NCBI RefSeq assembly: GCF_023612375.1
Contig: NZ_CP076852.1
Span: 434,001 to 498,000, forward strand
Direction: 5' to 3'
Origin: Mycoplasma sp. SG1
GTDB lineage: Bacteria; Bacillota_I; Bacilli_A; Mycoplasmatales; SG1
Length of the DNA: 64,000 bases
The notes beneath the pieces were generated by a model. That model did not search any database and was not told the origin of the DNA. It saw nothing but the letters and a program-made list of their open reading frames with translations. The position numbers were made by a program, and so were the translations under genes. Below, piece after piece: positions 22,829-64,000 of the stretch (position 1 is the stretch's first letter; every line of letters begins with the position of its first letter).

Positions 22829-24356
22829 TCTAAATAAGAGTTTGATCCTGGCTCAGGATTAATGCTAGCGAAATGACTAATACATGCAAGTTGAACGGGA
22901 AGAGCAATCTTTCAGTAGCGAACGGGTGAGTAATATATACCTAACCTGCCTATATATCAGAAATAACAACTAGAAATGGTTGCTAATATTTGATAGTATG
23001 GTAAGAAAACAATTTTTTATCATTAAAGGGGCAATTGCCTCGTATATAGATGGGGGTATACCACATTAGCTTTGGCGTAAGGTAATGGCTTACGTAGGCG
23101 ATGATGTGTAGTTGGCCCGAGAGGGCGACCAGCCACACTGGAATTGAGATAAGGTCCAGACTCCTCCGGGAGGCAGCAGTAAGGAATTTTTCACAATGGA
23201 CGAAAGTCTGATGGAGCAATTTCGCGTGCTCGATGAAGGTCTTAGGATTGTAAAGAGCTGTCGCAAGGGAAAAAAAGAAAGATAATTGGAATGTATCTTT
23301 TTTGATGGTACCTTGCTATTAGTTACGGCTAACTATGTGCCAGCAGCCGCGGTAATACATAGGTAGCAAGCATTATCCGGAATTATTGGGTGTAAAGCGT
23401 GAGTAGGCGGTTTATTAAGTCTATGGTCAAATATCAAGGCTCAACCTTAGATGTGCCATGGAAACTAATAGACTAGAACGTAAAGGAAGGTAGTGCAATT
23501 CTGCAAGTAATGGTGATATATTTCGATATGCAGGAGAACACCTGAGGCGTAGGCGACTATCTAATTTATTGTTGACGCTCAATCACGAAGGTATGGGTAT
23601 CGAATAGCATTAGTCCGCTAGTAGTCCATACAGTAAACGATGAGCACTAAATATTGGCAGTATTGTCAGTCATTAAAGTTAACACGTTAAGTGCTCCACC
23701 TGAGTAGTACGTTCGCAAGAATAAAACTCAAAGGAATTGACGGGGACTAGCACAAGTGGTGGAGCGTGTGGTTTAATTCGATTCTAAGCGAAGAACCTTA
23801 CCAAGGTTTGACATTTGGTGCAAAGCTATAGAAATATAGTGGAGGCTATCATCAAACAGGTGGTGCATGGTTGTCGTCAGTTCGTGTCGTGAGATGTAAG
23901 GTTAAGTCCCATAACGAACGCAACCCTTCTTTTTAGTTGCTACCATTAAGTTGAGGAATCTAAAAATACAGTTAGCGTAAGCTAAACGGAGGAAAGGATG
24001 ATGACAAATCATTATGCCCTTTATACCTTGGGCTACACACGCGCTACAATGGTCAATACAATAAGTTGCAAACCAGCGATGGGGAGCTAATCTTTAAAAT
24101 TGATCTCAGTTCAGATTGAAGTCTGCAATTCGACTTCATTAAGTAGGAATCACTAGTAATCGCAAATCAGCCACGTTGCGGTGAATACGTTCTCTAGTCT
24201 TGTACACACCGCCCGTCAAACCATGAAAGTTGATAGTACTTGAAGCCAATACTAATAACCATTTTTGGATTTATTTGTCTAGAGTAAGATCAGCAATTGG
24301 GGTTAAGTCGTAACAAGGTATCCCTATGAGAACTTGGGGATGGATCACCTCCTTTC
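22829..24356 (+). rRNA. rrs: 16S ribosomal RNA
   Basis: The conserved 5' AGAGTTTGATCCTGGCTCAG is at 22837, with the GTGCCAGCAGCCGCGGTAA region at 23335, AAACTCAAAGGAATTGACGG at 23725, TTGTACACACCGCCCGTC at 24199 and GGATCACCTCCTTTCT at the 3' end. The length of about 1,528 bases is normal. The anti-Shine-Dalgarno CCTCC is present although genes in this window rarely have matching sites. No tRNA gene follows it. Ends are estimated by homology. Confidence 0.98.
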
Positions 24357-35753: not shown

Positions 35754-35786
35754 AATCCCCCCACTTTAGTGGTGGGGATTTTTTTT
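35754..35786 (+). terminator. Strong rho-independent terminator after greA
   Basis: GC-rich stem AATCCCCCCAC / GTGGTGGGGATT with a short loop, followed by T8. It isolates the giant gene downstream from the alaS-ruvX-greA unit. Confidence 0.93.
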
Positions 35787-35820
35787 ATTTAATTTTTTTT
35801 AATATTGTTCATTTTTATAA

Positions 35821-35848
35821 TTGACCTACAATCTTGTATAGTGATAAA
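35821..35848 (+). promoter_or_regulatory. Candidate promoter of the giant repeat-protein gene
   Basis: TTGACC (35821-35826), a 16-17 base spacer and GATAAAA (35843-35849) lie in the 120-base gap after the greA terminator, ~60 bases before the ATG. The -10 is imperfect, so confidence is low. Confidence 0.35.
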
Positions 35849-35907: not shown

Positions 35908-38900
35908 ATGAAAAATAAAAATAAATCAAAAATAATCTATTGAAAATTACTGGTTTCAATAACATTATTTACTTTTGCTACTATTTCATCATTTTCAATT
36001 ATTAGTCAAATTATAGGTGGTGATAATTCTGAAAATAATGTAACATTAAACTCTAATTTAGCAGAAAACCGTGTAAATAACTATGGTAATTTTCAACAAA
36101 ATTTTGGTGATATTTTAAAAATAGACCCTATTTTAAATGGTAAACTACTTGGAAATACCAATTTTAATAAAATATTAGCGGATCAGATTCCTTATTCAAT
36201 ACCAAAAAAATATAAATATTGGATGATGTTTGATTTTACTGGATTTTTTAATCGAAATAATACAAAAGTATTTTGCTCTAATGCGTATTATCTTAATAAA
36301 GAAGATGGAAAAAATAAATCATTAATTATCGTAAAAGATATTAACAGAGGTTATGTTATTCCGTTGGAAGCTGACTATACAGGCAATAATATAAAAAGGG
36401 TTGCATTTACAAAAATCAGGGTTTCAAAACCTATTGCTAATAAATTTGGAGAATGAATAAATAATAACGATACACTTAAAGATGTTTTTGAAACTATTAA
36501 AAATAAAATAGGTTATGTAAATGGTTTTGAATTTAATGAATTAACAAAAAATTATATAAGACATTTTACTGTTTTGAACAATGGTTTAATATCATTGCCA
36601 AATAATAACTATACAATTACAAGTAGTGAAATTACGGGAGAATTCCAATGAAAAAATAATGGAGTAAAAGGAAATAACGTTAATGTATTAACATTTCAAA
36701 ACAATAAATTAACTAACGATATTTTAAAACATTTCTCAGGTTCCTCAGAATATCAGATGGGTGTTGAGGATATTTTATCCATTGTCTTTATTATAATTAC
36801 TGCCATAACTATCGTCATACCATTTTTTGGACCTGTTATATCAACAGCTGCTGGAACAGCAGAAGCCGGTCTTGCAGGTGGAGAAGCGGCAGCTGAAGGT
36901 GCAGGACTTCTAGGTGCAGCGGCTGAAACTGGGGCCGGTTTAAGTGAAGCGACAACAACAATAGCAAGTGCTGGCGGAAATATTCTAAATGCCTTTAGAA
37001 ATATTGGTTCATATATTTATTCTGGAATAGAATATTTAAGTCCAAGTAAACCTCTTGCTAATATTATCTTTGGGGCTGCTGAAGACTGAACTTGAAAAAC
37101 AGTCGCAGAAGCTGGATTAAATATCGGACTGAGTATCTTTGTTGGAGATATTCTTCCTACATATTCAATTATTAGCAAGTTTTCAACAATAAATAATTAT
37201 GATATGTATCAAACTTCAATCACTACTGGTTATCTTTTTAATATTGGGTTAATGACTTTTTTTAGTGCCAGATTGCTTTGACAAATTAAAAACTTAGTAT
37301 TAACGTCTAAATTATTGCTAAATTCAGGTGAAATATTGTTCATAAAATTTTGAGACAGTGTTAGATTTGGTGCAAAAACAAATTTTTTTAACCCCACATA
37401 CATTGGGTCGTTTTTCATAAGATCGATTGCTAAAATGATTCCAAGTAGTATATTTTTTCTTCCAACAGTTATTAATTTTTTTAAACATTTAGAATTAATG
37501 AAAGAATCAAATTTAGGTTATATAAGTTCAAATTTTACAACCGCTTATTATTTTTTAGAAGTTCTGATTAATGCTGGAAGTTCAGGTATAGAATTAGTTT
37601 CTAATTTTATCATAGAACATCCTACTATATTTACTCGTTTATCTTCATATATGGATGCAACTGCAGGCAATCGTAATACTCATCAGGGCAGTTCTGAACA
37701 TTTCCTTCCTCCAAACGATCCTTTAGATCAACCATCTACAAGTACAGGAATCAGAATTCCTAGCGGAGGATCTGAAGATCCAACTTTACATACAATAAGA
37801 CTATTACAAAAACAAAAAAATTTATTTGGAACTCCCGATTCAACAACTTCAAATTACACAGATGCTTTAAGCGGTGAAATATCATTAAAAAAACGATCAA
37901 TTGATGATTTAAGCGATTATCAAAGTTTAGACTTCAATGAAAACAAGTTTTCATTCACATCCGATAATGTCAAACCAACAACAAATCAAGATCATATTTA
38001 TAGTGTCATTGATAAAACATCTAAAACACTCAAATCAAGCACGGATAATGAAATAAACGCATCAGGTTTTTTTTATACTCAAACTGATGAATATCCTCCA
38101 GAAGTACCACCTAAAACTTTTGGTTTATTTAGAAATAATTTATCTAATGAAGGCGATTCTATATCTGAAAAAGATAAAAGCGAAGAAGCCTCATTGTTGT
38201 GGGATGGTAAAGAATGAGACGATTATAAATTGGTTTCTTCTGACATATCTATAGATGATAGTAAATCTGAAGGTTCTTTATATTCAACACCAGAAGAATT
38301 TATAAATGGAATAGAGGAAAAAATTAATGATTTAGAACAAGATGTAAAACTAAGAAGTATAACTATTGAAAGTTTGAAAAAATTTGAAGACCACTATTCT
38401 TTGCTAAAAGGTGATGAAGAAGATAAATATTGAAATGATCAAAAAATATCTAGTTTAGTTGAAGATTATAACAAAGAAAAATGACCACAAATACTTGAAA
38501 AATTAACTTATGATAGTGATGAAAAAATAGATTATAATTTCCCTACTCTAAGACAGGATGAAGAAGATATTGACCCCATTTCCTTTCAACATGATTTAGC
38601 AGTTATTAAGTACAATTTATCAAGTAGCCAAGAAGATATTAATAATATTGAGGAGCCAGAAAAATCTATCACAGAAGAATTTGGAAGTTTAAACGACCAT
38701 TTACATGATAGTTCATTTGAAAAATCAGAAAATAATCAATTAAATGATTCTTTTATATTAGATAAAAGCTTAGATGATGAAGAAAGCATCAATCAAAACT
38801 TATCTATTGATCGAATAATTGAAACAGAAGAACAAAGATTACAAGCACAAGAACCGGTCTTAGATATCCCTCAAATAGATACTGAAGCTCAACAAATAGA

Positions 38901-41900
38901 TCAAATTTATAAAAATCCCGAAATTTTGTTTAATTTTACAGATGATGAATGTATTAAATTATCAACAGATAAAGATATAAGTTTAATATTTGATAACGGG
39001 GTTGGAGCATTTCACGCTGAATTAAGTAAAAATTCTTTCGATCCAGGAAGAGTATATATTGATCAAACAAAAATATTGGATCTTTCTAAACGAATAACCA
39101 ACAAATTTTTAAAGGAATATAAGTTTTTAAATAATAGATTTCTTAATTTTGAAAAAATAATAACAAAAATTGATGACTTTTATCATAAGGTTGCAAAAAT
39201 ATCAATCTTATATGTATCGAATAAAAATAAAGTATTAGGAATTGAAACAATAAATATTAGCGATTTTCTAAATAATTTCTTAAAAATAAACGATGAAAAT
39301 ACTATTTTAGAAAGAGGAAATGAAGAGCTTATAAACGTATTTAAAGAAAGTCAGTTAATCAATAAACTGCCTAAAAATGTTAATGTATATTTTTTTGAAA
39401 ATGAATATTTTAAAGAATTATTCTCTAGAAATAAATGAAACAATGAATATAACTTCTTGAATTTTATTTTCAGAAAATGAAACTTAAACACTATTTTAAA
39501 CCTAATAACTAAAAATAAACTTACTTTTGATGATATAACTGATGGAAAATTTAATCCAATTGCTTCTATAAGATTAAATATAAACATTGATGCTATTGAA
39601 GTCAAACCAGACAGGGGTCATAACATTTTTTGATTCAATACATATCAAGATACTAAGTTAAAACTTGTTAGTTATCAAGTATTAGAAATTAGTGATCCAG
39701 AAGATAATACGTTACAACTTTTCAAAATTCCAGAAACCGAAAATGATTTTGTTTTTGTAGAACATTCATTACTTGCAAAAAACTTACATCTTTTCAATAC
39801 AATGAAGAATCTTGCATCTGATATGAAACCATCAGCCCTTCAAAAATATATTGATAAATACTTTTTAACAAATAAATGGGATGCAAATTTATGAGAAAAA
39901 TATCAACATTATAAATGATCCCTAAATCTAAAACCTGGAATCTTAATACATGATGAATGCATTGCTGCTGAAGTTGAATATATTAAAAAAAGACAGGCTG
40001 CTATTAATGCATTGACAACAATAAATGAATTTTTTGTTCCTCCACAAAAACCTATAATTCAAGACTTAAAAACCCAAGAACTAACTGATCAACCAACTAA
40101 TAACATAATCTCAGAAAGTAATGAAATAGACCAAGTTTCAAAATTAAATGAACAAACAATAGTAGAAGATAAAGCTGAAGCGAGAAACATAACATCTCCA
40201 CAAGAAGAAAGAGCGGAAGATAAAACAGAAGATCCTAATACAAAAGACAGTAAGAATATTAGTGTTGATGGCGAATTAAGGGAAAACTTAAATATAGTAA
40301 ATGAATATGTTAATCCTTCAATAGAATCTATAATCAAAGATTCATCAATCCACGAACCAACTAATAACAAAATCCAAGAGCAAGAGTTTAATAACTTTTT
40401 TCGTGGATTGATGAATCGTATGAACCAAATTTCAGATTTAAATGAAGAAAGAGAAAATTTAATAAGTCAAAAAAATGCAGAACTAATCAATCAAATTTAT
40501 AAAAATCCAGAAATTTTATTTAATTTTAAAGATGATGAATTAATTCAATTACCGTCAAATAAAGATATTCATTTTATATCTGATAACGGATTTAAAGAAG
40601 CATACACTGAATTAAGGAGTGCTACTTCTCTTGATCAAATAAGACTTCAAAATATAATCAACAAAGCGAATGAAACAATTAAACCTTCTGACGAATATAA
40701 GTTTTTAAATAATAATCTTCTTCATTTTGATGAAATAATAACAAAAATTGATGATTTTTATCGTAAGGTTGCAAAAATATCAATTCTATATGTATCAAAT
40801 AAAAATAAAGTATTAGGAATTGAAACGATAAATATTAGCGATTTTCTAAATAATTTCTTAAAAATAAACTCAGAAAATAATATTTTAGAAAGAGGAAATG
40901 AAGAACTTTCAAATGTATTTAAAGAAAGTAAGTTAATTAATAAACTACCTAAAAATGTTAATGCGTATTTTCTAGAAAATAAATATTTTAAAGATTTGTT
41001 TTCTAGAAATGAATGAAACAATGAATATAACTTCTTGAATTTTATTTTAAAAAAATGAAATTTAAATACTACTTTAAATTTAATGAATGCCAATAAATTT
41101 ACTTTTGATGATTTATCTAATGACAAACTTAATCCAATTAATGCTATAAAGTTAACTTTAAGTGTTGATAGAATTAAACCAGATAATGTTTCTTGATTCA
41201 ATCGAAGTGGAAGTAGTAAATTAAAACTTGTTAATTATGAAGTATTGGAAATGAATGATTCAACAAATAATCCAGTAAAACTTTTTAAAATCCCAGAAAC
41301 TGGAAATGACTTTGTTTTTGTAGAACATTCATTACTTGCAAAAAACTTACATCTTTTCAATACAATGAAGAATCTTGCATCTGATATGAAACCATCTGCC
41401 CTTCAAAAATATATTGATAAATACTTTTTAACAAAGAAATGGGATGCAAGTTTATGGGAAAAATGTAAAAATTATAAATGGTCTCTAAGCATACAACCCG
41501 GATATTGAGATCAAGAAAATGATCAATTGAATGATTTAGATTTTGATTTATCTAAAAATGGATTATCTAGTGACAATGAAGATCTTTTATCATCAAAAAA
41601 TATAACCGAAAGAGGAAAATCGTTATTGCAAGATGATGAAGAATGACATGATGCAAAATCAAATACTTCAAAAATATCTATAAGTACCCAATCTGAAGAA
41701 TCTGAATATTTATTAACAAATGAATATATAACTAACGCAGAACAAAAAATTAATGATTTAAAACAAGGGTTAGAAAAAACTGACCAAAAAGGTCAATTAA
41801 CTATTGAATCATTGAAAAATTTAGAAGCGAAAGAATCAACATCGGTTACTCCAAGTCCAATAGGCAGTGAAGTTATTAAATTCGATCAAATTTATAAAAA

Positions 41901-44900
41901 TGTAGAAATTTTATTTGATTTTAAAAACAATGAACTTATTCAATTACCAACAGAAAAATATATATATTGAATATCTGTTAACGGGGTCAGGGAGTTATAC
42001 AATAAAATAATTAACAATTTTGATTCTCAAGAAAAATTATTAGATCCTGCAGGAGTAGATAGTGTAGTTGAGCCTTTTGAACCATATAAGTTTTTAGATA
42101 ATAATCATCTCCGTTTTGATGAAATAATAACAAAAATTGATGATTTTTATCATAAGGTTGCAAAAATATCAATTCTATATGTATCAAATAAAAATAAAGT
42201 ATTAGGAATTGAAACGATAAATATTAGCGATTTTCTAAATAATTTCTTAAAAATAAACTCAGAAAATAATATTTTAGAAAGAGGAAATGAAGAACTTTCA
42301 AATGTATTTAAAGAAAGTAAGTTAATTAATAAACTACCTAAAAATGTTAATGCGTATTTTCTAGAAAATAAATATTTTAAAGATTTGTTTTCTAGAAATG
42401 AATGAAACAATGAATATAACTTCTTGAATTTTATTTTAAAAAAATGAAATTTAAATACTACTTTAAATTTAATGAATGCCAATAAATTTACTTTTGATGA
42501 TTTATCTAATGACAAACTTAATCCAATTAATGCTATAAAGTTAACTTTAAGTGTTGATAGAATTAAACCAGATAATGTTTCTTGATTCAATCGAAGTGGA
42601 AGTAGTAAATTAAAACTTGTTAATTATGAAGTATTGGAAATGAATGATTCAACAAATAATCCAGTAAAACTTTTTAAAATCCCAGAAACTGGAAATGACT
42701 TTGTTTTTGTGGAGCATTCAATCCTTAAAAACAACTTATCCCTTTTCAAAACAATGAAAAAATATATATATGTCGCGGATAAACTATCCCTTCAAAAATT
42801 TATTAATGAAAATTTTTTAACAAAGAGATGAGATGCAAATTTATGGGAAAAATATAGCGGATACAAATGATCTAAAAATTTAAAACATGAAAGCTTAAAA
42901 AATGATGAAAATATTACAACTAAGATTGAATCTTCTGTAAACCAAGTCGCTTCAAATGAAGAGGCAACAAAAGATATTGAAAAAGCTAAAAACGATGATT
43001 TTTATGCTAATTACTCAGAACCAGAAAGATTACAATTCTGAGAAAATTTAAAAATACCAGAAGATAGTATTTATGATTATAAAATAACAAATAACCCTGA
43101 GACAATAGAGTCAATGTACGATTATGATCCTTTAACTGAAAATCTATTAAATGTTGATCTTATCGTAGACCAAATATCTAAAACAAAAGAAATCTATGAT
43201 GATAATATTGATTTAGAATCAGTTCCGATTAATAATACTATTTTGGATAAAACTGATAGTATTGCTAATGATGAACCAGAAAAAAAATTAATAAAACCAG
43301 GAGAAATAATTAATAGATCTGAGCTAATAATAGATTCAGCTATCGAAACTGATAAGGATTCTGTTGTATACTTTAGTAATTTTATCAAAATGAATAAAGA
43401 TGCGTTTATAAATGCGTTTATTCCCTATAATAATGGTCATAAAACTATATGATATTTCGATGAAGAGTTATTTTTAAACATTATTTCTACTTTTTCTACT
43501 ATAAACTTAGAAATATTTGAAAGAATAGTAAATAATGATGAAATTATTTCTGATAAAGATTTTAACCAAATTCTTAAAATCATCGATATAAAAAATCCAT
43601 CCATAATAGAAGCGTTTAAAAATTATTTTAATAATATAAATAATCACAAATTATTTAATAATCATGTTAAAAAAACTATTTTATTAACCGATGACGTTGA
43701 TTTAAAAGACTATAAAACAATAACATCCATAATATTAAATGATATATCTGAGATTAAAAACAATCCTGGTTCTTCTAATACTATTTATCCAAGCAACTTT
43801 TTCAATGATATTCTATTTAACTGTAAAGTTCAACACTTCTTCCGAACAAATCAAGACTTAATTAATTTTGGTCTAAAAAATAAATTGATTAAAATTCTTG
43901 ACAATAATGTAGTATTTATTACGGATAATAATTTTCAATTTATGAATCACGTTTATAAACTTTTTGGTTTAAAACCGTTGAGATATTTAAATCTATACTT
44001 TAAAAAACTAAATATTATGTTGTCTCAAAACTCTTGAAGTATAGATAGAATAATTGAAGAGTATTTCCCTCCACTTATGAAAATAAAATTATATGATTCA
44101 GACTTTGATGAAGTAAATATTGAAGGTAATGAAAGTGATAGCTTTTATCATTCTATTAATATATCGAATAAATATATTAATGTTCCAACTAATGATTTAT
44201 TAGATGGTAGCTTTGAACTAAAAACAACCGACCAACTAATGGAACTTGAAAACTTTAGTAAAAGAACTTTTACTAAAGTTGATATTGAAATCAAATTTAA
44301 CGATGCATTAAAACATGCTATTGTAGACAATCCTAATCTAAATTTTCTTCATTGATATGTTGTTAATGAAGCGTATAACAGTCTTACCCAAAATGATATT
44401 GCATTTATTAATACTGATGAAAAATTTTTTAGGTTTGATGTTATAGATTTGGAATCTAATAAAGCAAGTCAATATTGAATGACTAAATCTGAATTTACTT
44501 CATGATTTAATTCTATAGATCCTATAAATGAATCCGATCTAATAGATCCCAATCTTCTTCAAGAAAAACTAGTAGCATCTATTAAAACTATTTGAGAAGA
44601 GCAAAACAAAGACATTAGTATCTTTGATCATGAAAAATATTTTTTAAATTTTGCACCAAAAGATATTCCAAATAGTTATTGAATATGTCTAAATAAACAT
44701 CTAATTAATAATTTAAGCATAATGAAAAGTTTTACTTTATCAAAAATAATGGATTACGCTAGAAAATTAGCTAAAGTTTTTAATCCAACCGCTACAAAAA
44801 ATTTATCACCCAGCGATATATATAGTTTTAAAACAGTTAATAACGCAGAAATTAAAGATTTATATTTCAAACTCTTTGATAAATGACTAGAACCAAGTTA

Positions 44901-47900
44901 TAAAATGAGCACAGTTGATGCTTATTATATAAATGATGCTGTTGATAGAACCGACAATCTACTTGCTAAAGTAAATGTTAGAATGATGATTCCAAAATCA
45001 TTTAATACAAATAAAATTGCTAATAAATTGTGATTTTTTGCTAAAATACGTGAACTAAACTTTTTTGCCATTAAAACTAAAAATCAAAAATTAATAATAA
45101 CTGATTCATCATGAGCTGATCTTAAAAAACATTTTTCAACAGAACAACTAAAACTTATTAAAGACTTTATTAATTTTACTAATGTTAAAATTTTTAGAAA
45201 TAAAGAAACTAAATGAGCAGTAGATAGTTATAATGTAATGCCAAAAAACATTGAATTAATCAAAAATGAATATATAAAAAATGTTAATAATTTTTATCAT
45301 TATTTAATTTCAAATATTAAAAAAATTAATTTCCAAGAATTGTTAATAAATAAAAGTGAGTCATTTATATTCTTAATAAAAAATAAAATTATTCCTGTAA
45401 ATGATTCTTCATATTATTATTTTGATTTCAATTTTTCAACTGAACAATGACAAAACATTTATTTAAATTGCCCAGATAAAAATAAAGAATACATGGTTAA
45501 ATGATTTGAAAAAATGATTAATGTAATATCTGAACCTATTAACGTATTTGACCATATTGAACCTGCATTTTGAATAAATACCGATACCCTTGAATATAAT
45601 AATATTCCAAAAATTGAGTTATCAAACCATATTTACTTATACAGAGATTTTGAAAAATTTTTTAAATTATTCCCTAATGCAAACATTTCTAACTTTATTT
45701 CAGTTAGTCAAGATATACATGGACGTTATTACGAATATACTGAAAAAATACAAAGTGTTAATTTTAATAAAAATTTAGTGGGTTGATTTGATAATAATTA
45801 CGAAAAAAGAGCATTAACAGATATAAATAATAATCCATTAAATAATTTGATCGCATTACAAATATTATCAAATAATAATTCTCAACAAAATATAATTGAT
45901 ATTTCAGCTAATGAAGCAGTTGTAGATTTATTGGTTAAATTGTATAAAATAGAAAATTCATCACAATTATTTTATAAATTTATAAACGAAAATGTTCAAA
46001 ATTATCAATTTGCTGAAAATATAATTTCTTTGACTAATGAAGTGTTTGGTGTAAAAGATAATCATGCTTTGTCTATAATTTTAGAAAATATAAAAGAAAT
46101 AACCACTCTATGCAGTTTGGATGAGTTTATTACTAAGTTTTATCCTGATTTTGACATTGACAATCAAACTTTAGTTTATGGAATGCATTTGGAATCATTT
46201 CATTTGAAAAATAATGGACTTTCGCCAAAAGAGTATATAAAAATAAATGTTTTGCTAAAAAATTTCAAACAATTTATTCCGTTTATAGAATCTATTAAAA
46301 AAGTTAGTATAAAACAACAATCGTTTAATTTTCAAATTTTTAAAAAGGAACTATTAAACTATACAAGAACATTACACTTTTTATTTGATAAAGAACAACT
46401 AAAAAAATTAATCCCTGATTTAAATAGAACATCAAGATCAATAGAACCAGAAGTTTCTAATAATTACGAAAACAAATATATTACAGAAATAATTAGCAAA
46501 AAGTATACAAAAAGTAGAGCAAAATATGGAGTGATACCGAAAATAAATATAAAATTAAAAGTGCCCACTGGTCTTGAAACAACTCTTGGAGACGGCAATT
46601 TCCCAACAAGAATTAATGATAACACAAAAATAATTTCACTTGCGCAAGTAGAAAAAGATAAAACAAATATTCTAAATGTTAAAAAATATATTCCCGTTAC
46701 ACGCGGTATGTTTAAAAGTATTATAAAAAATATTTTAGAATCGAACTTAAAAGTTTTATTAAATTCTATCTCAGAAAGACATTTAGATAGAAATAACGGA
46801 GAAGCATCAAGTTCATTATCCGATGATCCATTTATTTTTAATACATTACAATATAAATTTGATTCAATTGATGATTACACCAGAGCTGTATTGGGTTTTA
46901 ATCGTTCAGTTAAAATGGCTATCTTAAAACTTACATTACCAGAACATGAATATGTAAATGCTATCGAATCGCTACCTGATTTTATTACAATAATTCATGA
47001 TAATTCTTTATTAGATATTCGTAAGTATTTCACAGAATTTAATATACCAATATTTAATCCTGAAAATGATTTTAAAATGTTTTTGGATGGAATATTTAAT
47101 TCAAATTTAAGTTCTATAATGAGTTTTATATCAACATATGAATATTTTAAAAATATGAATATAACTTCTAAAAATATAAAATTAAAAATCAAAAATTCTC
47201 TTTTTGCAGAAAATAATATTTTAATTGATCTAAAACATATTAAAGAAATCGATGCACAAATAAGATTTAATATATTTAACGGAGAAAATGCTAATTTTAA
47301 TTACTGACTTCCTCAAAAAAATGAATTACCATTTAAGTTAGATCAAATAGTGAATCTCTTTGTGGACCCCGATAATGTTTTTAAATACAATTTTACTACA
47401 CATGATTGTAACGATAAGATATATGAAAAAATATTCTTTAATTGAATTAGTTTCAAAAGGAATAAAATGATTCCGCTTGAAAAATTTAAAGAATTATTAG
47501 ATTTAAATTGAATAAAATTAAAAAATGGAAGAATGTCTGAAGCAGAGTATAATCAAGCGAGAAAAATTATTTATCTACCTAATAAATTACTGTATAAAAT
47601 ATCATTTGCTTTAAGACCGAAATCATTTTTATCTTTAATCAATTGAATAGTCGAGAATAATAAAGAATATATTCTTGCTATTCAAAAACAATTATCTTTA
47701 GACAAATTTCACTCTGAAAAAGTTGTAACAAAATGAATAGAGGAGCAATATAATAAAATCTTTAAACACAATATTTTATTAAAAAGTAGTGAAAATTTCC
47801 TTAAATGAACTAACTTTACAACTCAAAATTTAAATGAAAAATGGAGTATTGATAACAAATCTTTAGAATATATTCCTTTAAAATATCCACATTTATACCA

Positions 47901-49131
47901 TGCTTTAGAATTACATAAAAGCGATAATGCTATGTGTGTTTGAATTAATCTAAATATAAATAATATTGAAAAATCAATAAGAATTAATATAAATGATTTA
48001 ATAAATAACGTTTTTGATAAAAACTTTGATAAATATTTAGAGAAAGCGAGTTCTACAGAACAACGATTAACACATCATGAACAAATAATGTTATTGAATT
48101 TAAAACAAAAAATAATTTCTAAAACTATAAATCACATAATACATCAAATATACGATTGATTAATAAAAAATAATGTTTTTAAAGAGTATAGATTATCATA
48201 TATTAATTTATTATTTGATAGTCAACTTATAACATATATAAAAAACTTTAATTTTAATGTTTGATCAATTATTACAGATTCATTTATTTATCTTCATGAC
48301 AAACAGATAAAAGATATTATTGGCACAAATGTAGAAAAACTAACAATTCCTACTCAATCAATCGATAATAATTATTCAATAACTTCAGATACAAGAAATC
48401 GTATGATGAATTACTCTCATCAACTTTTTGAATTAAATACGGGAGTGTGACTTGTTAACTTTAATAATTCAATATCAAATGATAAACTTCTTGAAATGTT
48501 TAATGGATGAATATTGCATGCGAAAAGATTGTTAAATTTAAATACTGATATTCAATATAATTTATCCATGATAAAAAGTGATATTTTACAATATTTAAAA
48601 CCACACTTTAAATATTGTATAAGTCTTGAAAAATTTAAAGAATTTAATAAAATGGAACTTGCTGGCATTAAACCGTATAAAATTATTAAAAATATCAGAC
48701 AAACCCAATTAAAAAATGTTATTATTGAGGATATTCAAGTAATGGATGGACTGAGCAATAAAAGAATTGAAGAATTTAAAATATTTTTAAATCAAATGGG
48801 ACATTCATTAATATCTATACCAAAAGAATCTATTTTACGTCATACTGATATAATCCAAGCTTTAGTTTTCGATGAAGTTAATAAAAAAGTTGTCTCTTTG
48901 ATTAATATTGATCTATCTTTTAATACTCTAACAAATATAAGAGAATTTATCATTAATAATATGCATTCAGAAAAAATAGCATTATCAAAAAATTATAAAT
49001 TTATAATTTACTATAACTCTAATGTCGTTGATAGCATATATCAAAATGCAACTTCTTACGAAGATGCTAAAATGATGATAAAAGGATTAAATGATTTCGT
49101 CTACAAAAAACATAATTTATTAATAGATTAA
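35908..49131 (+). CDS. Giant membrane-anchored repeat protein, about 4,407 residues
   Basis: A single frame of 13.2 kb with TGA as Trp; I read the joins between its apparent pieces and found no TAA or TAG. Residues ~12-32 form a signal-anchor helix. A hydrophobic block at ~284-320, an Ala/Gly/Glu-rich stretch to ~350 and further hydrophobic helices to ~560 suggest several membrane passes. An acidic, Ser/Asn-rich linker follows to ~995. Three ~330-residue modules (from about 997, 1527 and 1992) are separated by acidic linkers. About 2,100 further Asn/Lys/Ile-rich residues with scattered aromatic Trp complete it. Function unknown; size recalls gliding or adhesion giants of mycoplasmas, but I see no homology. 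Downstream are a PP2C phosphatase and a kinase. Flanked by AT-rich gaps. Confidence 0.85.
38898..39950 (+). repeat. Repeat module 1 of the giant protein
   Basis: Begins IDQIYKNPEILFNFTDDE and contains KVAKISILYVSNKNKVLG, NISDFLNNFLKIN, INKLPKNVN and ends near KYFLTNKWDANLWEKYQHYKW. Diverged from modules 2 and 3 in its centre, but its 3' end (39757-39870) is nearly identical to 41320-41433 of module 2. Confidence 0.85.
40490..41505 (+). repeat. Repeat module 2 of the giant protein
   Basis: Same order of blocks as module 1 (INQIYKNPEILFNFKDDE onward). Bases 40763-41321 match 42152-42710 of module 3 with no difference found on reading, at a fixed offset of 1,389 bases (463 codons). Confidence 0.88.
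41885..42880 (+). repeat. Repeat module 3 of the giant protein
   Basis: Begins FDQIYKNVEILFDFKNNE. Its centre is identical to module 2 over about 560 bases. Both flanks differ: the entry block (41940-42120) and the end after 42710 (SILKNNLSLFKTMKKY) are unique to it. Confidence 0.88.
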
Positions 49132-49243: not shown

Positions 49244-49996
49244 ATGTATTTATTAGGTATAGCAGCTCAATACTGCGGAAAATTTCGAAAAGAAAATCAA
49301 GACTACTCCACTTTTGTTTTTAATAAAAATGGAATTAATTTATGTGCAATAGCGGATGGTATGGGCGGTCACTATGGAAGTAAAAATGCTTCTAAACTTG
49401 CTCTTGAAATATTAAAAACTGAATTTTTAAAATTTAATATTTCACAAACTACAGAAATTGATGATATTCAAAAATGAATAGTCGATGTATGTAAAAATAT
49501 TAAAAAAGAAATGATAGAGTTTTGCCAAAAAAATACTACTTTTTATGATATGGGCACTACTCTTAACTTCACTATTATCCAAAATGATAAAATTTTTGCA
49601 GTTAATATAGGTGATTCTAGAACTTATTTTACAACACAAAAAAGTATTATTCAGCTTTCTAAAGATCAAAATATTCTAAACGAAAAAAATGAAGAAAACG
49701 AAAATAGTAATTTGTTTAAAGACTTGTCAAAAAACATATTAGCAAATAGTTTAACTAGTGCTTTAGGACCTAATAAAAAATATATAGTTCAAATTAAATT
49801 AATTGAAAATGTCCAAAAAGGATGGCTTTTATTGTGTACAGATGGGATATACTCTGTTGTTGATGATCGTAGTTTGTTAGCCACTATTATTAGACCAATA
49901 AACCTTTTTTCGAAAATAGAATCTTTAATAAACCAAGCTTTTGTCCTTGGTTCAAAAGATAACTGTAGTGCTGTTATGATTAAAATTGAAAATTAG
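49244..49996 (+). CDS. PP2C-family Ser/Thr protein phosphatase (Stp/PrpC)
   Basis: 250 residues. PP2C motifs in order: RKENQDYS near residue 16 (Arg and first metal Asp region), IADGMGGHYGS near residue 38, YDMGTTLNF near residue 102, VNIGDSRTY near residue 120, LTSALG, LLCTDGIYSVV near residue 205 and KDNCSAVMI at the end. Metal-binding Asp residues are all present. It removes phosphate from Ser/Thr. It precedes its partner kinase by 3 bases, the common prpC-prkC operon. Confidence 0.95.
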
Positions 49997-49999
49997 GTT

Positions 50000-51046
50000 A
50001 TGAATTCACATGATTCAATTACCCGTTATAAAATTATAAAAAAAATAGGATCAGGTGGAATGGCTGAAGTTTTTTTAGCCCATGATAAACTTCTAAATAA
50101 AGAAGTAGCTATTAAAAAAATTAAATTTTCAAGAACGAATAATAACGAAAATACTAGCGAATTATTAAACGCTGATGCACAAGCTAAAAAATTTGTAAAA
50201 ATTAAAAGAATTGACAGAGAAATTCAAACTCTTTCAATGCTTAGGCATAAATCATTAGTAAAACTTCATGATTATTTTGTTGATAATGAAGGATATGATA
50301 ATATCGTAATGGAATATGTTCCTGGGTTAACCTTAATTCAAAAACTTAAACAGGATGGAGTTTTTGAATTAAGAACTGGTCTTAACTTTTTTTTACAAAT
50401 TTTATATGCGGTTAAAGCAATTCATGATAACGGAATCATTCACCGTGATTTAAAACCACAAAATATAATAATGAACCCAAATGGAAGTTTTAAAATTACT
50501 GACTTTGGAATAGCTATTTTAAAAGATCAAGAACATGTTACCAAAACTGATAATTTAATTGGCTCCCCTTTTTATCTAGCTCCTGAAATAATTTTGGGAA
50601 TTAATGATAAAAAAACAGATCCAAAGGTGGATATTTATAGTTTGGGTATTATTCTTTATGAAATTTTTGTAGGTGCTCCGCCTTTTGCAAAAGATGCAAA
50701 TGTCCTGAAAATTATTCAAAATCAACTAACTACTAGCATACCGTTGGTATCATTAATAAATAACTCCATCCCGTCATCGGTTGATAAAATAATTTTGAAA
50801 TCTACTTTTAAAGATCCAAAAAAACGTTATAACTCAATTGATGAAATTATAATTGATGTTAATAAGATACTAAATAATAAACCATTAGATATCAAAGCAA
50901 AAAAAATTAATTGGTATACAAAAAAATGGCAAAAAGTTTTTACAAAAAATAAAACTATAAAAAAATATTACCATTGAATTGGTTTTTTATTGTTTATATT
51001 TTTTACTTTACTAGCAATAACTATTATTTTGTTAATTAAAATTTAA
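50000..51046 (+). CDS. Ser/Thr protein kinase (PrkC-like), no PASTA domains
   Basis: 348 residues. The kinase domain has GSGGMAEVFLAHD, Lys in EVAIKKIK, HRDLKPQNI, DFG (TDFGIAIL) and SPFYLAPEI, all intact. A basic juxtamembrane stretch (WYTKKWQKVFTKNKT) precedes a single membrane helix at the very C-terminus with only a few residues beyond it. Classic PrkC has extracellular PASTA repeats that sense peptidoglycan; their absence fits a wall-less cell. The frame crosses a TGA (Trp) at 50975. Its stop overlaps that of sigA on the other strand. Confidence 0.95.
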
Positions 51047-55936: not shown

Positions 55937-57046
55937 TTAAATATTTATTTTAAATATTTTTAAAAAGTAAGCATTTATATATTTATTTAAAAAAACCAAA
56001 AAAATATTCGAAGAAATAAACAGCATAATTCAATTAATATTAAATATAAAATAAATTAATAAAATTAAAAAATAAACAGAAAATATTAAAAAATAATTTA
56101 TGACTCACCTGTTTGAAAAATAAAGTTTTTGGACTATTTTTATATTATATTTTTTAAAAACTAAAAATTTTAATAATTGAAATACAATTTTGGTAAATAA
56201 CAATAATCCCAAAAATGTTACTCCCATAAAATATTGAAATAATAAAAAATATATGATCAATATTCAAAGTTGAAAACTATATTTAAAAAATGAAATTTTA
56301 TCGTAAAAAAGTCTCAAACATACATTAGAATAAACTTTTTTAGATAATAAAAATAACTTTTTGTTAACTCGTTTTTTTTCAATTTCTATAACAAAAATTA
56401 TGCAACTATAAATTAAAAATAAAGCTATAGAAAATAATAATGAAAAATCGAACATAATAAATATTCTTAAAATAAACGGTAAAAAAATTAACAAAATAAG
56501 TCCGATAAAATCTAAAACATAACTCCCAAAAACTAATTTTCAATCAGGGTTAAAAAGATAGTTTAAGGGTGGTTTATTTTTAAAATGTTCGTTGCTAAAA
56601 AATATATATTTACAATCATTATTTATTTTTTGAATTAAAACAAATAAATAATCGCAATTATTTAAAAATCAGTTTTTATCAACTAATAAATGTCCTCAAG
56701 TTGGGTCATATATTAATATTTTATTTTTAAAAATTTTTAAAATGTTTAAAATGTGCTTTTGATGATTTATTTTAATGATAGATAAACAATAATAATTTTT
56801 ATTAATAACTGGAACCGAAGAAATTATATAGCGATACTTTCAACTTTTTAAAATATTTAAAAAATTGAAAAAATCAATACCTTTTGCTGTTAATATATTT
56901 TTATAAAATGCTAAAAAAGTAAAATAACTAATTGAAAAATTTAATATATTAGTTTTATTTAATTTATAAATTATTTTTATTCCGCAATCATTTATCATGA
57001 ATAAAAATAGGGAAAATAAAATAATAATTATAATTTTTGATCGCAA
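55937..57046 (-). CDS. Membrane protein with a degenerate C39-peptidase-like N-terminus, no ATPase
   Basis: 369 residues from TTG 57046; a TAA lies directly upstream in frame. Residues ~17-140 resemble the C39 peptidase domain of bacteriocin exporters: MINDCGIKIIYKL (catalytic Cys), PVINKNYYCLSII, and KNKILIYDPTWGHLLVDKNWF-type end. The Cys is kept, but the His expected in a 'N-H-Y/F-V-V' block appears as Tyr-Cys. About six membrane helices follow, in the place of the exporter membrane domain. There is no nucleotide-binding domain and no ABC ATPase nearby. It overlaps the ThiT-like gene by 19 bases and is 2 bases before ybeY. Function unknown. Confidence 0.55.
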
Positions 57047-57675
57047 TTAATGTTTTGACTATTTTGATAATAATCAATTAAAAAAGAAATTGGAATTGGT
57101 AAAAATATAGCAAAAAATAAATATGTTCCGACCATATAATAACTATTTAAAACAAGAGAATTTGCCCAAACCTTTCAATTTTGTCAATTGCTATTCGAAG
57201 GAGCAAAATATAAAGCTCCAGAAATTACATGTAGAACAAAATTTATTAAAAAAATAATAATAAATACTATTTCTAAATAAATTATTTTTTTGGATTTGGA
57301 AAAATTATTGAATGCTGTTAAATCATTTTTAAAAAAGAAAATTTTAAATAAATTAATAACTAAGGCTGGAATTATATATGGTAAGTTGTAATCTAAAATT
57401 ACTTGTACTGGATTTATTAATCATCCGCTACTTGATGGGACTAATAAAATTGCTAATAATGATGTTATGATCCCAAATGTAAATGAAACTAGAAAACCAG
57501 TAATAAAACTAACTAAAATAATCGGTAAAAAATGAATCTCAATCGTCCCCCCGGTTGAAAATTTTGGAAAAACTCCTTCAAGAACAACAAAAACAATGGT
57601 TACTGCCATTAAAACAGCAATAATTGCAATTGTTTTTTGATTAAATCTTTTCTTTTTAGGTCAATCTCAATTCAT
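57028..57675 (-). CDS. ThiT-like ECF transporter S component
   Basis: 215 residues with six membrane helices. It starts MNWDWPKKKRFNQ and has VQVILDYNLPYIIPALV near residue 88, matching the ThiT 'Q.LLDY..AF..LG' core, and GALYFAPSNSN near residue 152. S components bind vitamins and are energised by shared EcfAAT modules, none of which are in view. Thiamine is the likeliest ligand. The ATG overlaps the stop of the RNase H gene (TAATG). Confidence 0.75.
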
Positions 57676-59016
57676 TAAATGATTCCATTAAAAGTTTGTA
57701 TATAAGTTTTAAATTTAGCTAATTGATTGAAACTTATTTTGTTATCTAAAATATTTAAAAGTTCTAAAATATTATTTAAATTATTTTTTATGAATTGGAT
57801 TGTTTTTAACCCATCATAGTTTTGATCAATTAATAAAGAAAAATTTATATCTTTGGTGTCGATATTAATCTCTTTTAACAAACTAGAAACAACAAGCGAA
57901 AAAGCAAAAAATAATTTTAAAGGAGAAAAATTTTCTATAACAAAAATTTTTTTTTGAACATCTTGTAAAATAAAAAGTTTTCAGTTGGTTTTCTGAAAAT
58001 TTATTTTTTAATAATTTAATAATTTCTTCTTCTGTCTTGGTGTTGAAAAAATCTAAATTAATAAAAAAATAATCATAAACGCCGTGGTATTCTAATTTAT
58101 AATTTTTAAAAAGTCAAGATGAAATTAACTTAGTTTCTTTAGATTTATCTAAAAGACTATTATTTAAATACACTAAACCATCATTTTGTTTTATAAATTC
58201 TAAATGAATTGGATTGTTATTGTAATTTATAGTTAAATGTTTTTTAAATTTAAGTATTTTGTAATCTATGATTTTTATCTCATTAAAATTAGTTTCTAAA
58301 ATCGATTTTAAATAATTATCTGTTAAAGTTTCAAAGTTAAAAACTAATGAATTTTTAACTCCTATTGTTTCGCTGTAGGCTTTGTTTAAATGAGCTTCAT
58401 TTGCTAATTTATCTGTTAAATTTAAGAAATTATTATCGCTGTGGCCTTTAATTTTTAAAAAATCAATTTGTGAATCATTATTAAAGTTTTGTTTGAATAG
58501 GTCTTGATACATTTTTATCATCGGATTGTTAGATTTTCAGGTTTTACAAAATTCACTTATCCCGATATAGTCATGACAAATTAAAGTCTTTTTAGAATTT
58601 AAGAGCAATGAGTATTTCATCGCAAACACAGCGGCCATCAATTCTCCTGCTACATTATTATGTTTTGAAAAAAATTTATGTAAAAATTTTTTTTTGATTG
58701 TTATTTTTGTTAACTGATTGTTAAATGAATTTGTTAATATTAAAATTCCTGCTGTGAAAGACTTTGTCAATTTATTAAAGCTGCCGTCAATAAAAAATAC
58801 TAGGTCATATTTTTCTAATCTTTTTTTGATATCATCAATTGTTTGAACAGATAAAGGGCTAGTATTTAAATAATTATTAATTGAATCTTCTGCTTCTTTT
58901 ATTGTTTTAAATGATTTATAAATTGCGTTAGGGTAACCGTTAACTTGATCAAAACACTCTTTTCAAGAATTATAAATTCCCGTTTTTTTCCCAACGTAAA
59001 CAACATAATATTTCAT
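57675..59016 (-). CDS. Viroplasmin-RNase H1 hybrid protein, frameshifted before its C-terminal part
   Basis: The N-terminal RNA/DNA-hybrid-binding viroplasmin domain (residues 1-50) begins MKYYVVYVGKKTGIYNSW and contains GYPNAIYKSFKTIKEAE. The RNase H fold (residues ~70-215) shows the four acidic sites: FIDGS, GELMAA, CHDYIGI and DKLANEA. After residue ~345 the frame ends early. The sensible continuation LFILQDVQKKIFVIENF (57979 to 57675) is in another frame, one base away, at an A4 run (57978-57981). The catalytic domain is unaffected. The C-terminal ~200 residues are a mollicute-type extension of unknown role. It removes RNA from RNA-DNA hybrids. Confidence 0.8.
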
Positions 59017-59025
59017 AAAGATATT

Positions 59026-59661
59026 TTAATCAATTCTGTATTGATTATTTTTAAAAATATCTATTAATCTTATAGTTGGAATATATAAAACGATGTTAAA
59101 TGTAAAAAATCCTATAATTCCAAAAAAATTAGATAAAAAACCATATCCTCATTTATCTAGACCTCCACGATTACCAGGCAAGGCGAAAAAATATAAAGCG
59201 CCAGCGACTGAACGTGATATATAAATAGCAACAAAAGAAGCAATAACGACAAATTCTGTAAAAAAAAGTTTTTTAAAAACGGATAGTTCTGTGAAATTAC
59301 GATATTTTTGCGCTTCTTTTCTACTAAAAAGTCAAACTATACTAATAAATAATCAAACAAAAAACATTGGAACTAAATATGGGATAACAAAATCTAAAAA
59401 AACTTGTCCAAAGCCAATAATTAAACTTGGTTTTATAAAAATCATTCTTAGTGCAAACGAAAGAATTGAAGCAACCGATGCAATTGAAAAAGGTGCTGTA
59501 AAAGCAAGAATAAAAATCGGAACAAGGTAAACTTCGAATGCAGAATTAACTAGGAAACTTGGAGATCAAAAAAATTGAACCATCGATATAACAAGAACTG
59601 TTGTTATCATCATAGAGCAATAAGCTATATATTGATTGGTTCACATTCTTTTTTTATTCAT
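59026..59661 (-). CDS. Second ThiT-like ECF transporter S component
   Basis: 211 residues, six membrane helices, starting MNKKRMWTNQYIAYC. GFGQVFLDFVIPYLVPM near residue 82 corresponds to the ligand-site loop of the paralogue at 57028, and AGALYFFALPGNRGG near residue 150 matches its GALYFAP block. The two differ widely elsewhere, so they may bind different ligands. It is 9 bases upstream of the RNase H gene, so the two S components flank it. Confidence 0.7.
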
Positions 59662-63403: not shown

Positions 63404-64000
63404 TTAACAATTTTTTAAAATAATTTTTTTTACTTCCTTTATGGTTTCTGACAAATTTTGATCTTTGTTATAAACAATATAATTATAAAGTTTGTTGTTA
63501 TATTTTATTAATTCCTCTTTTAAAATATAACTTAAACGTTTTTTAATTATCTCAGGATGATCTAGATTTCTTTTTTTTAAGCGAGAATCAATTAGTTTAC
63601 CAATATGCTCAATATCTTCGCTATGATATGGTAAAACCCCAATACTTACAATATATACGGAATTTTGAAAAATTTTCTTTAAATTTTCAAGTCCTTTATA
63701 CTCTATTTCTAATAAGACAGTTTTTTTATCAATATTATCAAAAATTTCAGATTTCAAAGTACCATAGTAATTACCAAGGTATTCTGTATATTCAATAAAT
63801 TCATCATTTTTGATTTTTGACTCAAATTCTTCTCTGCTTATAAAATGATATGCCTCATTATTAACTTCGCCATCTCGAATTGATCTTGAAGTGCAAGAAA
63901 CAGAATAATGCAAATTTAATTCGCTATCTTTTAATAACTCTTTAACAATTGAATTTTTGCCAACTCCGCTTGGGCCTGAAATAACAATTAACTTATTATC
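63404..64000 (-). CDS. gmk: Guanylate kinase (5' end beyond the window)
   Basis: 198 residues visible, nearly complete. P-loop ISGPSGVGKNSI at the start, then SCTSRSIRDGEVNNEAYHF (GMP binding), EYTEYLGNYYGTLKSEI and the SRLKKRNLD lid. It phosphorylates GMP to GDP. The initiation codon lies past base 64000. The third P-loop position (GVGKNS for GVGKST) has Asn, a mild departure. It ends 84 bases before the next gene on the same strand. Confidence 0.94.
   Translation of the reverse strand, partial: DNKLIVISGPSGVGKNSIVKELLKDSELNLHYSVSCTSRSIRDGEVNNEAYHFISREEFESKIKNDEFIEYTEYLGNYYGTLKSEIFDNIDKKTVLLEIEYKGLENLKKIFQNSVYIVSIGVLPYHSEDIEHIGKLIDSRLKKRNLDHPEIIKKRLSYILKEELIKYNNKLYNYIVYNKDQNLSETIKEVKKIILKNC

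What the first reader, a model, noticed from the sequence alone, without database searches (positions are those of the whole stretch)
35908..49131. A 13.2-kb single gene for a ~4,400-residue membrane-anchored protein
About one fifth of this window is one open frame. It starts with a signal-anchor helix, then hydrophobic and Ala/Gly-rich segments, then repeat modules and acidic linkers, then a ~2,100-residue Asn/Lys/Ile-rich region. It matches no family I recognise. A genome that has shed so much would only keep such a cost for an important surface or motility role. Giants of this size are known for gliding in M. mobile, but no sequence likeness is visible, so this may be an undescribed surface system.
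Basis: partly seen in the sequence, partly recalled or inferred. Interest (0 to 1): 0.8.

Follow-up and report, generated by a model that had tools for sequence, protein, structure and literature searches.

The report
Giant orphan surface protein, mollicute symbiont-like
A tiny wall-less bacterium spends 2% of its genome on one gene for a 4,407-residue, probably surface-displayed protein that resembles no known family; such one-off giant surface proteins are already known from related bacteria, so this is a new example more than a new kind of system.

Summary
Window 35908-49131 (+) is one frame of 4,407 codons under genetic code 4 (53 TGA=Trp, no TAA/TAG), with the genome's own codon usage. 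It is the longest gene of a 622,752-bp mollicute genome. Anatomy: N-terminal signal-anchor; a ~245-residue domain; a hydrophobic and Ala/Gly-rich stretch (284-575); then about 3,800 residues with no further hydrophobic segment. These hold acidic linkers, three ~350-residue modules and a ~2,000-residue C-terminal region. No homologue was found in Pfam, NCBIfam, PHROGs, PDB sequences, plasmids, phages or several hundred related genomes.

New here: (i) modules 2 and 3 share 558 identical bases, the only exact direct repeat of 100 bp or more found in the genome, while their flanks have dS 0.4-0.6: recent gene conversion or duplication; (ii) amino-acid composition matches this genome's secreted proteins, not its cytoplasmic ones; (iii) the gene joins two conserved gene blocks that are separate in relatives; (iv) one canonical F1Fo operon and no extra F1-like pair argue against M. 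mobile-type gliding.

Best reading: a lineage-specific, membrane-anchored giant surface protein, probably for host attachment. Isopod symbionts (Hepatoplasmataceae) carry analogous, sequence-unrelated giants.

The parts
35908..49131 (+). Giant gene, 4,407 codons, code 4
35759..35777 (+). Terminator-like hairpin with T-run after greA; separates the giant from the upstream gene block
   Evidence: 1 found, 0.1 expected; consensus match only
35814..35842 (+). Promoter-like site (TTTATA-17-TATAGT) upstream of the giant; weak, not above chance by much
35947..36003 (+). Signal-anchor or signal peptide, residues 14-32 after a Lys-rich N terminus
36025..36756 (+). N-terminal domain, residues 40-283, composition like secreted proteins
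36757..37632 (+). Hydrophobic and Ala/Gly-rich stretch, residues 284-575: one strong TM segment (289-307) and five weaker hydrophobic peaks to residue 569
37699..38910 (+). Acidic, Ser-rich disorder-like linker, residues 598-1001 (further linkers near 1395-1541, 1831-1964, 2295-2436)
38923..39978 (+). Module 1, residues 1006-1357
40501..41547 (+). Module 2, residues 1532-1880
41893..42930 (+). Module 3, residues 1996-2341
40764..41321 (+). 558-bp block identical to 42153-42710 (modules 2 and 3)
42153..42710 (+). 558-bp block identical to 40764-41321
39748..39833 (+). 86-bp block identical to 41311-41396 (modules 1 and 2)
43582..44283 (+). Possible diverged fourth module, residues 2559-2792; weak (9-13 of 1000 shuffles reach the score)
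42931..49128 (+). C-terminal region, residues 2342-4407, no homologue, no hydrophobic segment; no other internal repeat reached significance
49244..49996 (+). prpC, PP2C-type phosphatase, 112 bp downstream, no terminator found between
50000..51046 (+). prkC, Ser/Thr protein kinase with C-terminal TM

Best explanation
A lineage-specific giant surface protein. It is exported by the Sec system, held in the membrane by its N-terminal ~575 residues, and displays ~3,800 residues outside the cell as modules joined by flexible acidic linkers plus a long C-terminal region; the likeliest job is attachment to host tissue or surface. Shown: the intact gene, its codon usage, the anatomy, absence of homologues in the sets searched, composition like the genome's secreted proteins, purifying selection on the module core, and homogenisation of module 2/3 DNA. 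Inferred: export and outside topology (an even number of further membrane crossings in 284-575), attachment function, and that near-identical modules let the protein change module number or exchange sequence by recombination.
For: Real gene. N-terminal signal-anchor and no hydrophobic segment after ~575. Composition of four parts of the giant falls at or above about the 95th-99th percentile of soluble ORFs towards the secreted set; several soluble-set ORFs that score as high look like unflagged lipoproteins. Cys 11/4407 (0.25%) against 0.91% in 15 housekeeping genes, p = 1e-5. Modules 2 and 3 are 68% and 63% identical to module 1, core dN/dS 0.42. 558-bp identical block in modules 2/3, with dS = 0 inside and 0.42-0.59 outside; the only exact direct repeat of 100 bp or more in the genome stretches read. 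Gene lies between alaS-ruvX-greA and prpC-prkC, blocks kept apart in relatives, where prpC-prkC follows gmk. Same genome carries another cluster of giant ORFs with N-terminal signals and C-terminal TM anchors. Relatives (Hepatoplasmataceae) have unrelated giant repetitive ORFs proposed as adhesins (PMC10928387).
Against: No domain with a known binding function. No C-terminal TM, unlike the other giant ORFs of this genome. Topology of the hydrophobic stretch is ambiguous; an odd number of crossings would put the bulk inside. Low Cys alone is not decisive: 12% of soluble ORFs of 500 aa or more are as poor. No structural model could be made. No expression data.
Confidence: 0.6

Rival explanations
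1. Membrane-anchored internal scaffold (attachment-organelle or cytoskeleton type): the bulk lies in the cytoplasm, its acidic Ser-rich linkers are phosphorylated by the adjacent PrkC and dephosphorylated by PrpC, in analogy to M. pneumoniae, where these enzymes alter attachment-organelle proteins and gliding.
For: prpC-prkC lie 112 bp downstream on the same strand with no terminator found; linkers are Ser- and acid-rich; deletion of prkC or prpC in M. pneumoniae changes gliding and phosphorylation of organelle proteins (PMC4923136).
Against: prpC-prkC are a conserved pair that follows gmk in relatives, so their place beside the giant is a recent rearrangement and may be coincidence. Composition resembles secreted, not cytoplasmic, proteins.
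Confidence: 0.17
2. Very large secreted host-acting protein: the hydrophobic Ala/Gly-rich stretch inserts into a host membrane and the C-terminal region acts in or on the host cell.
For: Ala/Gly-rich hydrophobic stretch with several weak helices is unusual for a plain anchor; secreted-like composition; no homologue of the C-terminal region.
Against: No toxin, pore or effector family in Pfam or NCBIfam for the whole protein, nor in Pfam for six pieces searched apart. No match on plasmids for residues 1-2400 and none in phages for the C-terminal region. Signal-anchor is N-terminal to the hydrophobic stretch.
Confidence: 0.12
3. Component of a gliding machine, working like Gli521 or Gli349 of Mycoplasma mobile.
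For: Similar size (Gli521 4,727 aa, Gli349 3,183 aa; PMC7052211) and a membrane-anchored multi-domain plan.
Against: Only one F1-type alpha/beta pair, in a canonical atp operon; M. mobile has an extra F1-derived cluster. No likeness found in order-level searches. The giant has no giant partner gene beside it.
Confidence: 0.06
4. Assembly artefact: modules duplicated or frames fused falsely.
For: A 558-bp perfect repeat is a classic assembly trap.
Against: Flanks of modules 2 and 3 differ strongly (dS 0.42-0.59), so both copies exist; frame, codon usage and GC3 are uniform throughout.
Confidence: 0.03

Closest known systems
Giant repetitive ORFs of Hepatoplasmataceae (Ca. Hepatoplasma, Ca. Tyloplasma; PMC10928387)
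   Same: Very large, repeat-bearing, lineage-specific ORFs in ~0.6-Mb AT-rich mollicutes of the same order; few or no outside homologues; unrelated even between related genera
   Different: Those form tandem clusters of three to four with repeats of 11 to 195 residues, some predicted as beta-sandwiches; this one stands alone, has only three (perhaps four) ~350-residue modules, an Ala/Gly-rich hydrophobic N-terminal stretch and no sequence likeness. The second cluster in this genome (C1:351061-371554) fits their description better.
Gli521 and Gli349 of Mycoplasma mobile
   Same: Size class, membrane anchoring, multi-domain surface plan
   Different: No sequence similarity found; no second F1-like motor in the genome; no giant partner gene next to it
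Periscope proteins (SasG, Rib, Sgo_0707; PMC8201768)
   Same: Near-identical DNA repeats within a surface-protein gene, a substrate for intragenic recombination
   Different: Here few, large modules separated by disordered linkers; no known fold; no length variation shown (one genome only)
Attachment-organelle proteins of Mycoplasma pneumoniae regulated by PrkC/PrpC (PMC4923136)
   Same: Kinase and phosphatase genes adjacent here; acidic Ser-rich linkers
   Different: No homology found; adjacency is lineage-specific and may be accidental

Membership tests
Hepatoplasmataceae-type giant repetitive ORFs | Sequence similarity to those ORFs | tested here: not met
   No match of N-terminal, module or C-terminal queries in genomes of that family, identified by exact genome length, e.g. 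G010 = 657,101 bp, G028 = 615,622 bp
Hepatoplasmataceae-type giant repetitive ORFs | Tandem cluster of three to four giant paralogues | tested here: not met
   Giant is single, with no paralogue in its genome
Hepatoplasmataceae-type giant repetitive ORFs | Ig-like or beta-sandwich repeat fold | not testable with these tools
Mycoplasma mobile gliding proteins (Gli349/Gli521) | Sequence orthology | tested here: inconclusive
Mycoplasma mobile gliding proteins (Gli349/Gli521) | Extra F1-like alpha/beta gene cluster in the genome | tested here: not met
   One alpha/beta pair, within a canonical F1Fo-type operon
Periscope proteins | Long, highly identical tandem repeats in a surface-protein gene | tested here: inconclusive
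   558-bp identity between modules 2 and 3, but modules are separated by linkers and surface location is inferred
Periscope proteins | Repeat-number variation between strains | not testable with these tools
   Only one genome of this family held
PrkC-regulated attachment-organelle proteins | Phosphorylation by PrkC | not testable with these tools
   Needs phosphoproteomics

The most novel reading that the evidence does not exclude
The protein is the main structural element of an undescribed surface apparatus of a deep-branching mollicute family: a Sec-exported filament anchored by a polytopic Ala/Gly-rich N-terminal domain, whose modules are swapped and resized by intragenic recombination, and whose assembly is controlled by the co-transcribed PrkC/PrpC pair.
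Probability: 0.1. Interest if true: 0.75.

Novelty: new member of a known kind. Interest (0 to 1): 0.42.

Why it matters
It adds a sequence-unrelated case to the pattern that host-associated mollicutes with strongly reduced genomes each maintain their own giant surface proteins. It also shows, within one gene, recent homogenisation of modules, which suggests that such proteins can evolve by internal recombination. If the surface role is right, it marks a molecule by which a little-known lineage probably meets its host.

Tried and rejected
Family searches of the whole protein and of pieces: Pfam (best E 0.034 over the whole protein, below cut-off), NCBIfam, PHROGs, PDB sequences: nothing credible. 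Order-, class- and phylum-level genome searches gave only isolated short matches. The two read were a lipoprotein-like ORF (L103) and an ORF of unidentified family (L105), judged chance; L104, L106 and L107 were not read. Viral contigs and genome contigs pattern scans: no relative. Repeats in the C-terminal 1,500 residues: a suggested ~700-residue duplication did not pass shuffling (22-34 of 400). Positive selection: raw counts (67 nonsynonymous against 24 synonymous codons) looked suggestive, but dN/dS is 0.42 in the module 1/2 core and only ~0.8-1.2 in the N-terminal flanks, so claimed only as relaxed flanks. Naming the organism: genome length 622,752 did not match Hepatoplasmataceae or the coral mollicutes Oceanoplasma and Thalassoplasma. 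A Pfam accession guessed for a test was HxlR, a wasted search. GreA scan of genome contigs brought only distant Bacilli and Actinobacteria.

Full report
Observation. The frame from ATG 35908 to the stop ending at 49131 codes for 4,407 residues without TAA or TAG. By chance this has a probability near 10^-154. Code 4 is supported by a TCA-anticodon tRNA beside tRNA-Trp(CCA) and by TGA use in 15 neighbouring genes. GC at third positions is 13-15% in every 600-codon segment and RSCU correlates at 0.967 with housekeeping genes, so it is one native gene read throughout. It is the longest ORF in the genome, 622,752 bp in one contig, about 2.1% of it.

The organism. It belongs to the same order as Hepatoplasmataceae but is alone in its family in the held set. 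Its 16S gene is at most 77% identical to any other in the order sample. Genome lengths identify G010, G016 and G028 as Ca. Hepatoplasma crinochetorum, Ca. H. scabrum and Ca. Tyloplasma litorale. I could not name the organism of the window.

Anatomy. Residues 14-32 form an N-terminal signal-anchor. Residues 40-283 form a soluble domain. Residues 284-575 hold one strong hydrophobic segment (289-307, mean hydropathy 2.87), an Ala/Gly-rich stretch and five weaker hydrophobic peaks; nothing above 1.2 follows in the remaining ~3,800 residues. Acidic, disorder-like linkers (598-1001, 1395-1541, 1831-1964, 2295-2436) separate three modules (1006-1357, 1532-1880, 1996-2341). The C-terminal region to 4407 has no detectable relative. 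A fourth, diverged module at 2559-2792 is possible but weak: the score is reached by 9-13 of 1000 local shuffles, and by 15 of 500 (module 1) with another test. A further duplication in the C-terminal region was tested and not supported.

Evolution of the modules. Modules 2 and 3 are identical over 558 bases (40764-41321 and 42153-42710). This is the only exact direct repeat of 100 bases or more in the genome stretches I read (inverted repeats not tested). Inside, dS is zero over 199 codons; on either side it is 0.42 and 0.59. Modules 1 and 2 share a different block, 86 bases, nearer the C-terminal end of the module. Patchwork of this kind is expected from gene conversion or partial duplication between modules. 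The module 1/2 core has dN/dS 0.42, so it is under constraint; the N-terminal flanks are near 0.8-1.2, so relaxed. There is no support for positive selection on the core.

Location of the protein. A composition score trained on this genome's own signal-bearing proteins and the second giant cluster, against ORFs without hydrophobic segments, places the N-terminal domain, linkers, modules and C-terminal region at +0.013 to +0.028 per residue. Soluble ORFs average -0.025, with 95th percentile +0.012. Several soluble-set ORFs that exceed the giant begin like lipoproteins, i.e. are mislabelled by my crude rule. Cys is 0.25%, against 0.91% in housekeeping genes (p = 1e-5), but 12% of large soluble ORFs are as poor. 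I take this as moderate evidence for an extracellular location. That would need an even number of membrane crossings within 284-575; this is inference.

Gene neighbourhood. Upstream, alaS-(ruvX)-greA is a block found again in most of the relatives examined; downstream, prpC-prkC is a pair that follows gmk in four of the five relatives fetched around it. Gene names other than prpC and prkC rest on similarity between genomes and my own recognition of the sequences. In this genome gmk is 12 kb away on the other strand, and the giant sits exactly between the two blocks. So it occupies a rearrangement junction and its adjacency to the kinase and phosphatase is recent. A terminator-like hairpin separates it from greA; none was found between it and prpC, so co-transcription with prpC-prkC is possible but unshown. 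In M. pneumoniae, loss of prkC or prpC changes phosphorylation of attachment-organelle proteins and gliding (PMC4923136), which makes the juxtaposition worth a test, no more.

Relatives. No credible match to the N-terminal part in 99 relatives and ~395 genomes of the class, to the modules in 320 genomes of the order and ~390 of the phylum, or to the C-terminal region in 99 relatives. None in plasmids for residues 1-2400 or phages for the C-terminal region. None to itself elsewhere in its genome. It is an orphan within these collections; metagenomes could not be searched.

Motility. M. mobile gliding uses an internal motor built from an extra F1-like cluster and the surface giants Gli123, Gli349 and Gli521 (PMC7052211). 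Here there is one alpha/beta pair, in a canonical F1Fo operon. So the M. mobile mechanism is not supported; other mechanisms are not excluded.

A second giant cluster. The same genome carries three tandem ORFs of 1,659 (with a separate 414-aa ORF matching the missing C-terminal part), 2,241 and 2,212 aa at C1:351061-371554, with N-terminal signals and, in the last two, a C-terminal hydrophobic segment and basic tail. They are mutually related and unrelated to the present gene. This matches the description of tandem giant ORFs in Hepatoplasmataceae (PMC10928387) and supports the general reading that this lineage displays giant proteins on its surface.

Verdict. Real, unusual in size, orphan in sequence, most likely a lineage-specific surface protein used towards the host. 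The kind is known; the member is new. The function is inferred.

Noticed in passing
G000:C1:351061-371554 (L125-L127): Tandem cluster of three giant secreted-looking paralogues (1,659, 2,241, 2,212 aa; N-terminal signal, C-terminal hydrophobic segment and basic tail in two). No Pfam match above cut-off in the parts scanned.
   Followed up: partly
G000:C1:351061-357926: First paralogue appears split: its missing C-terminal part (80% identical to the second paralogue) is a separate 414-aa ORF after a gap; broken gene, assembly or real loss not resolved.
   Followed up: partly
G000:C1:373589-379360: Array of small lipoprotein paralogues with a common signal (SFAGC-type) directly after the giant cluster.
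   Followed up: no
window 22830-24355: 16S rRNA at most 77% identical to any of 317 genomes of the order: a very deep or fast-evolving lineage, sole member of its family here.
   Followed up: partly
G000:C1:109942-113139 (L113): Full-length carbamoyl-phosphate synthase large subunit, unexpected in such a reduced mollicute.
   Followed up: partly
G000:C1:129315-132932 (L114): Pyruvate:ferredoxin (flavodoxin) oxidoreductase, suggests an anaerobic life.
   Followed up: partly
window 49244-51046 and 63404-63913: The gmk-prpC-prkC block of relatives is broken here; gmk lies 12 kb away on the opposite strand.
   Followed up: partly
window 57028-59661: Two predicted polytopic membrane proteins, by eye like ECF transporter S components, flank an RNase H-like gene; not checked by profile search.
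   Followed up: no
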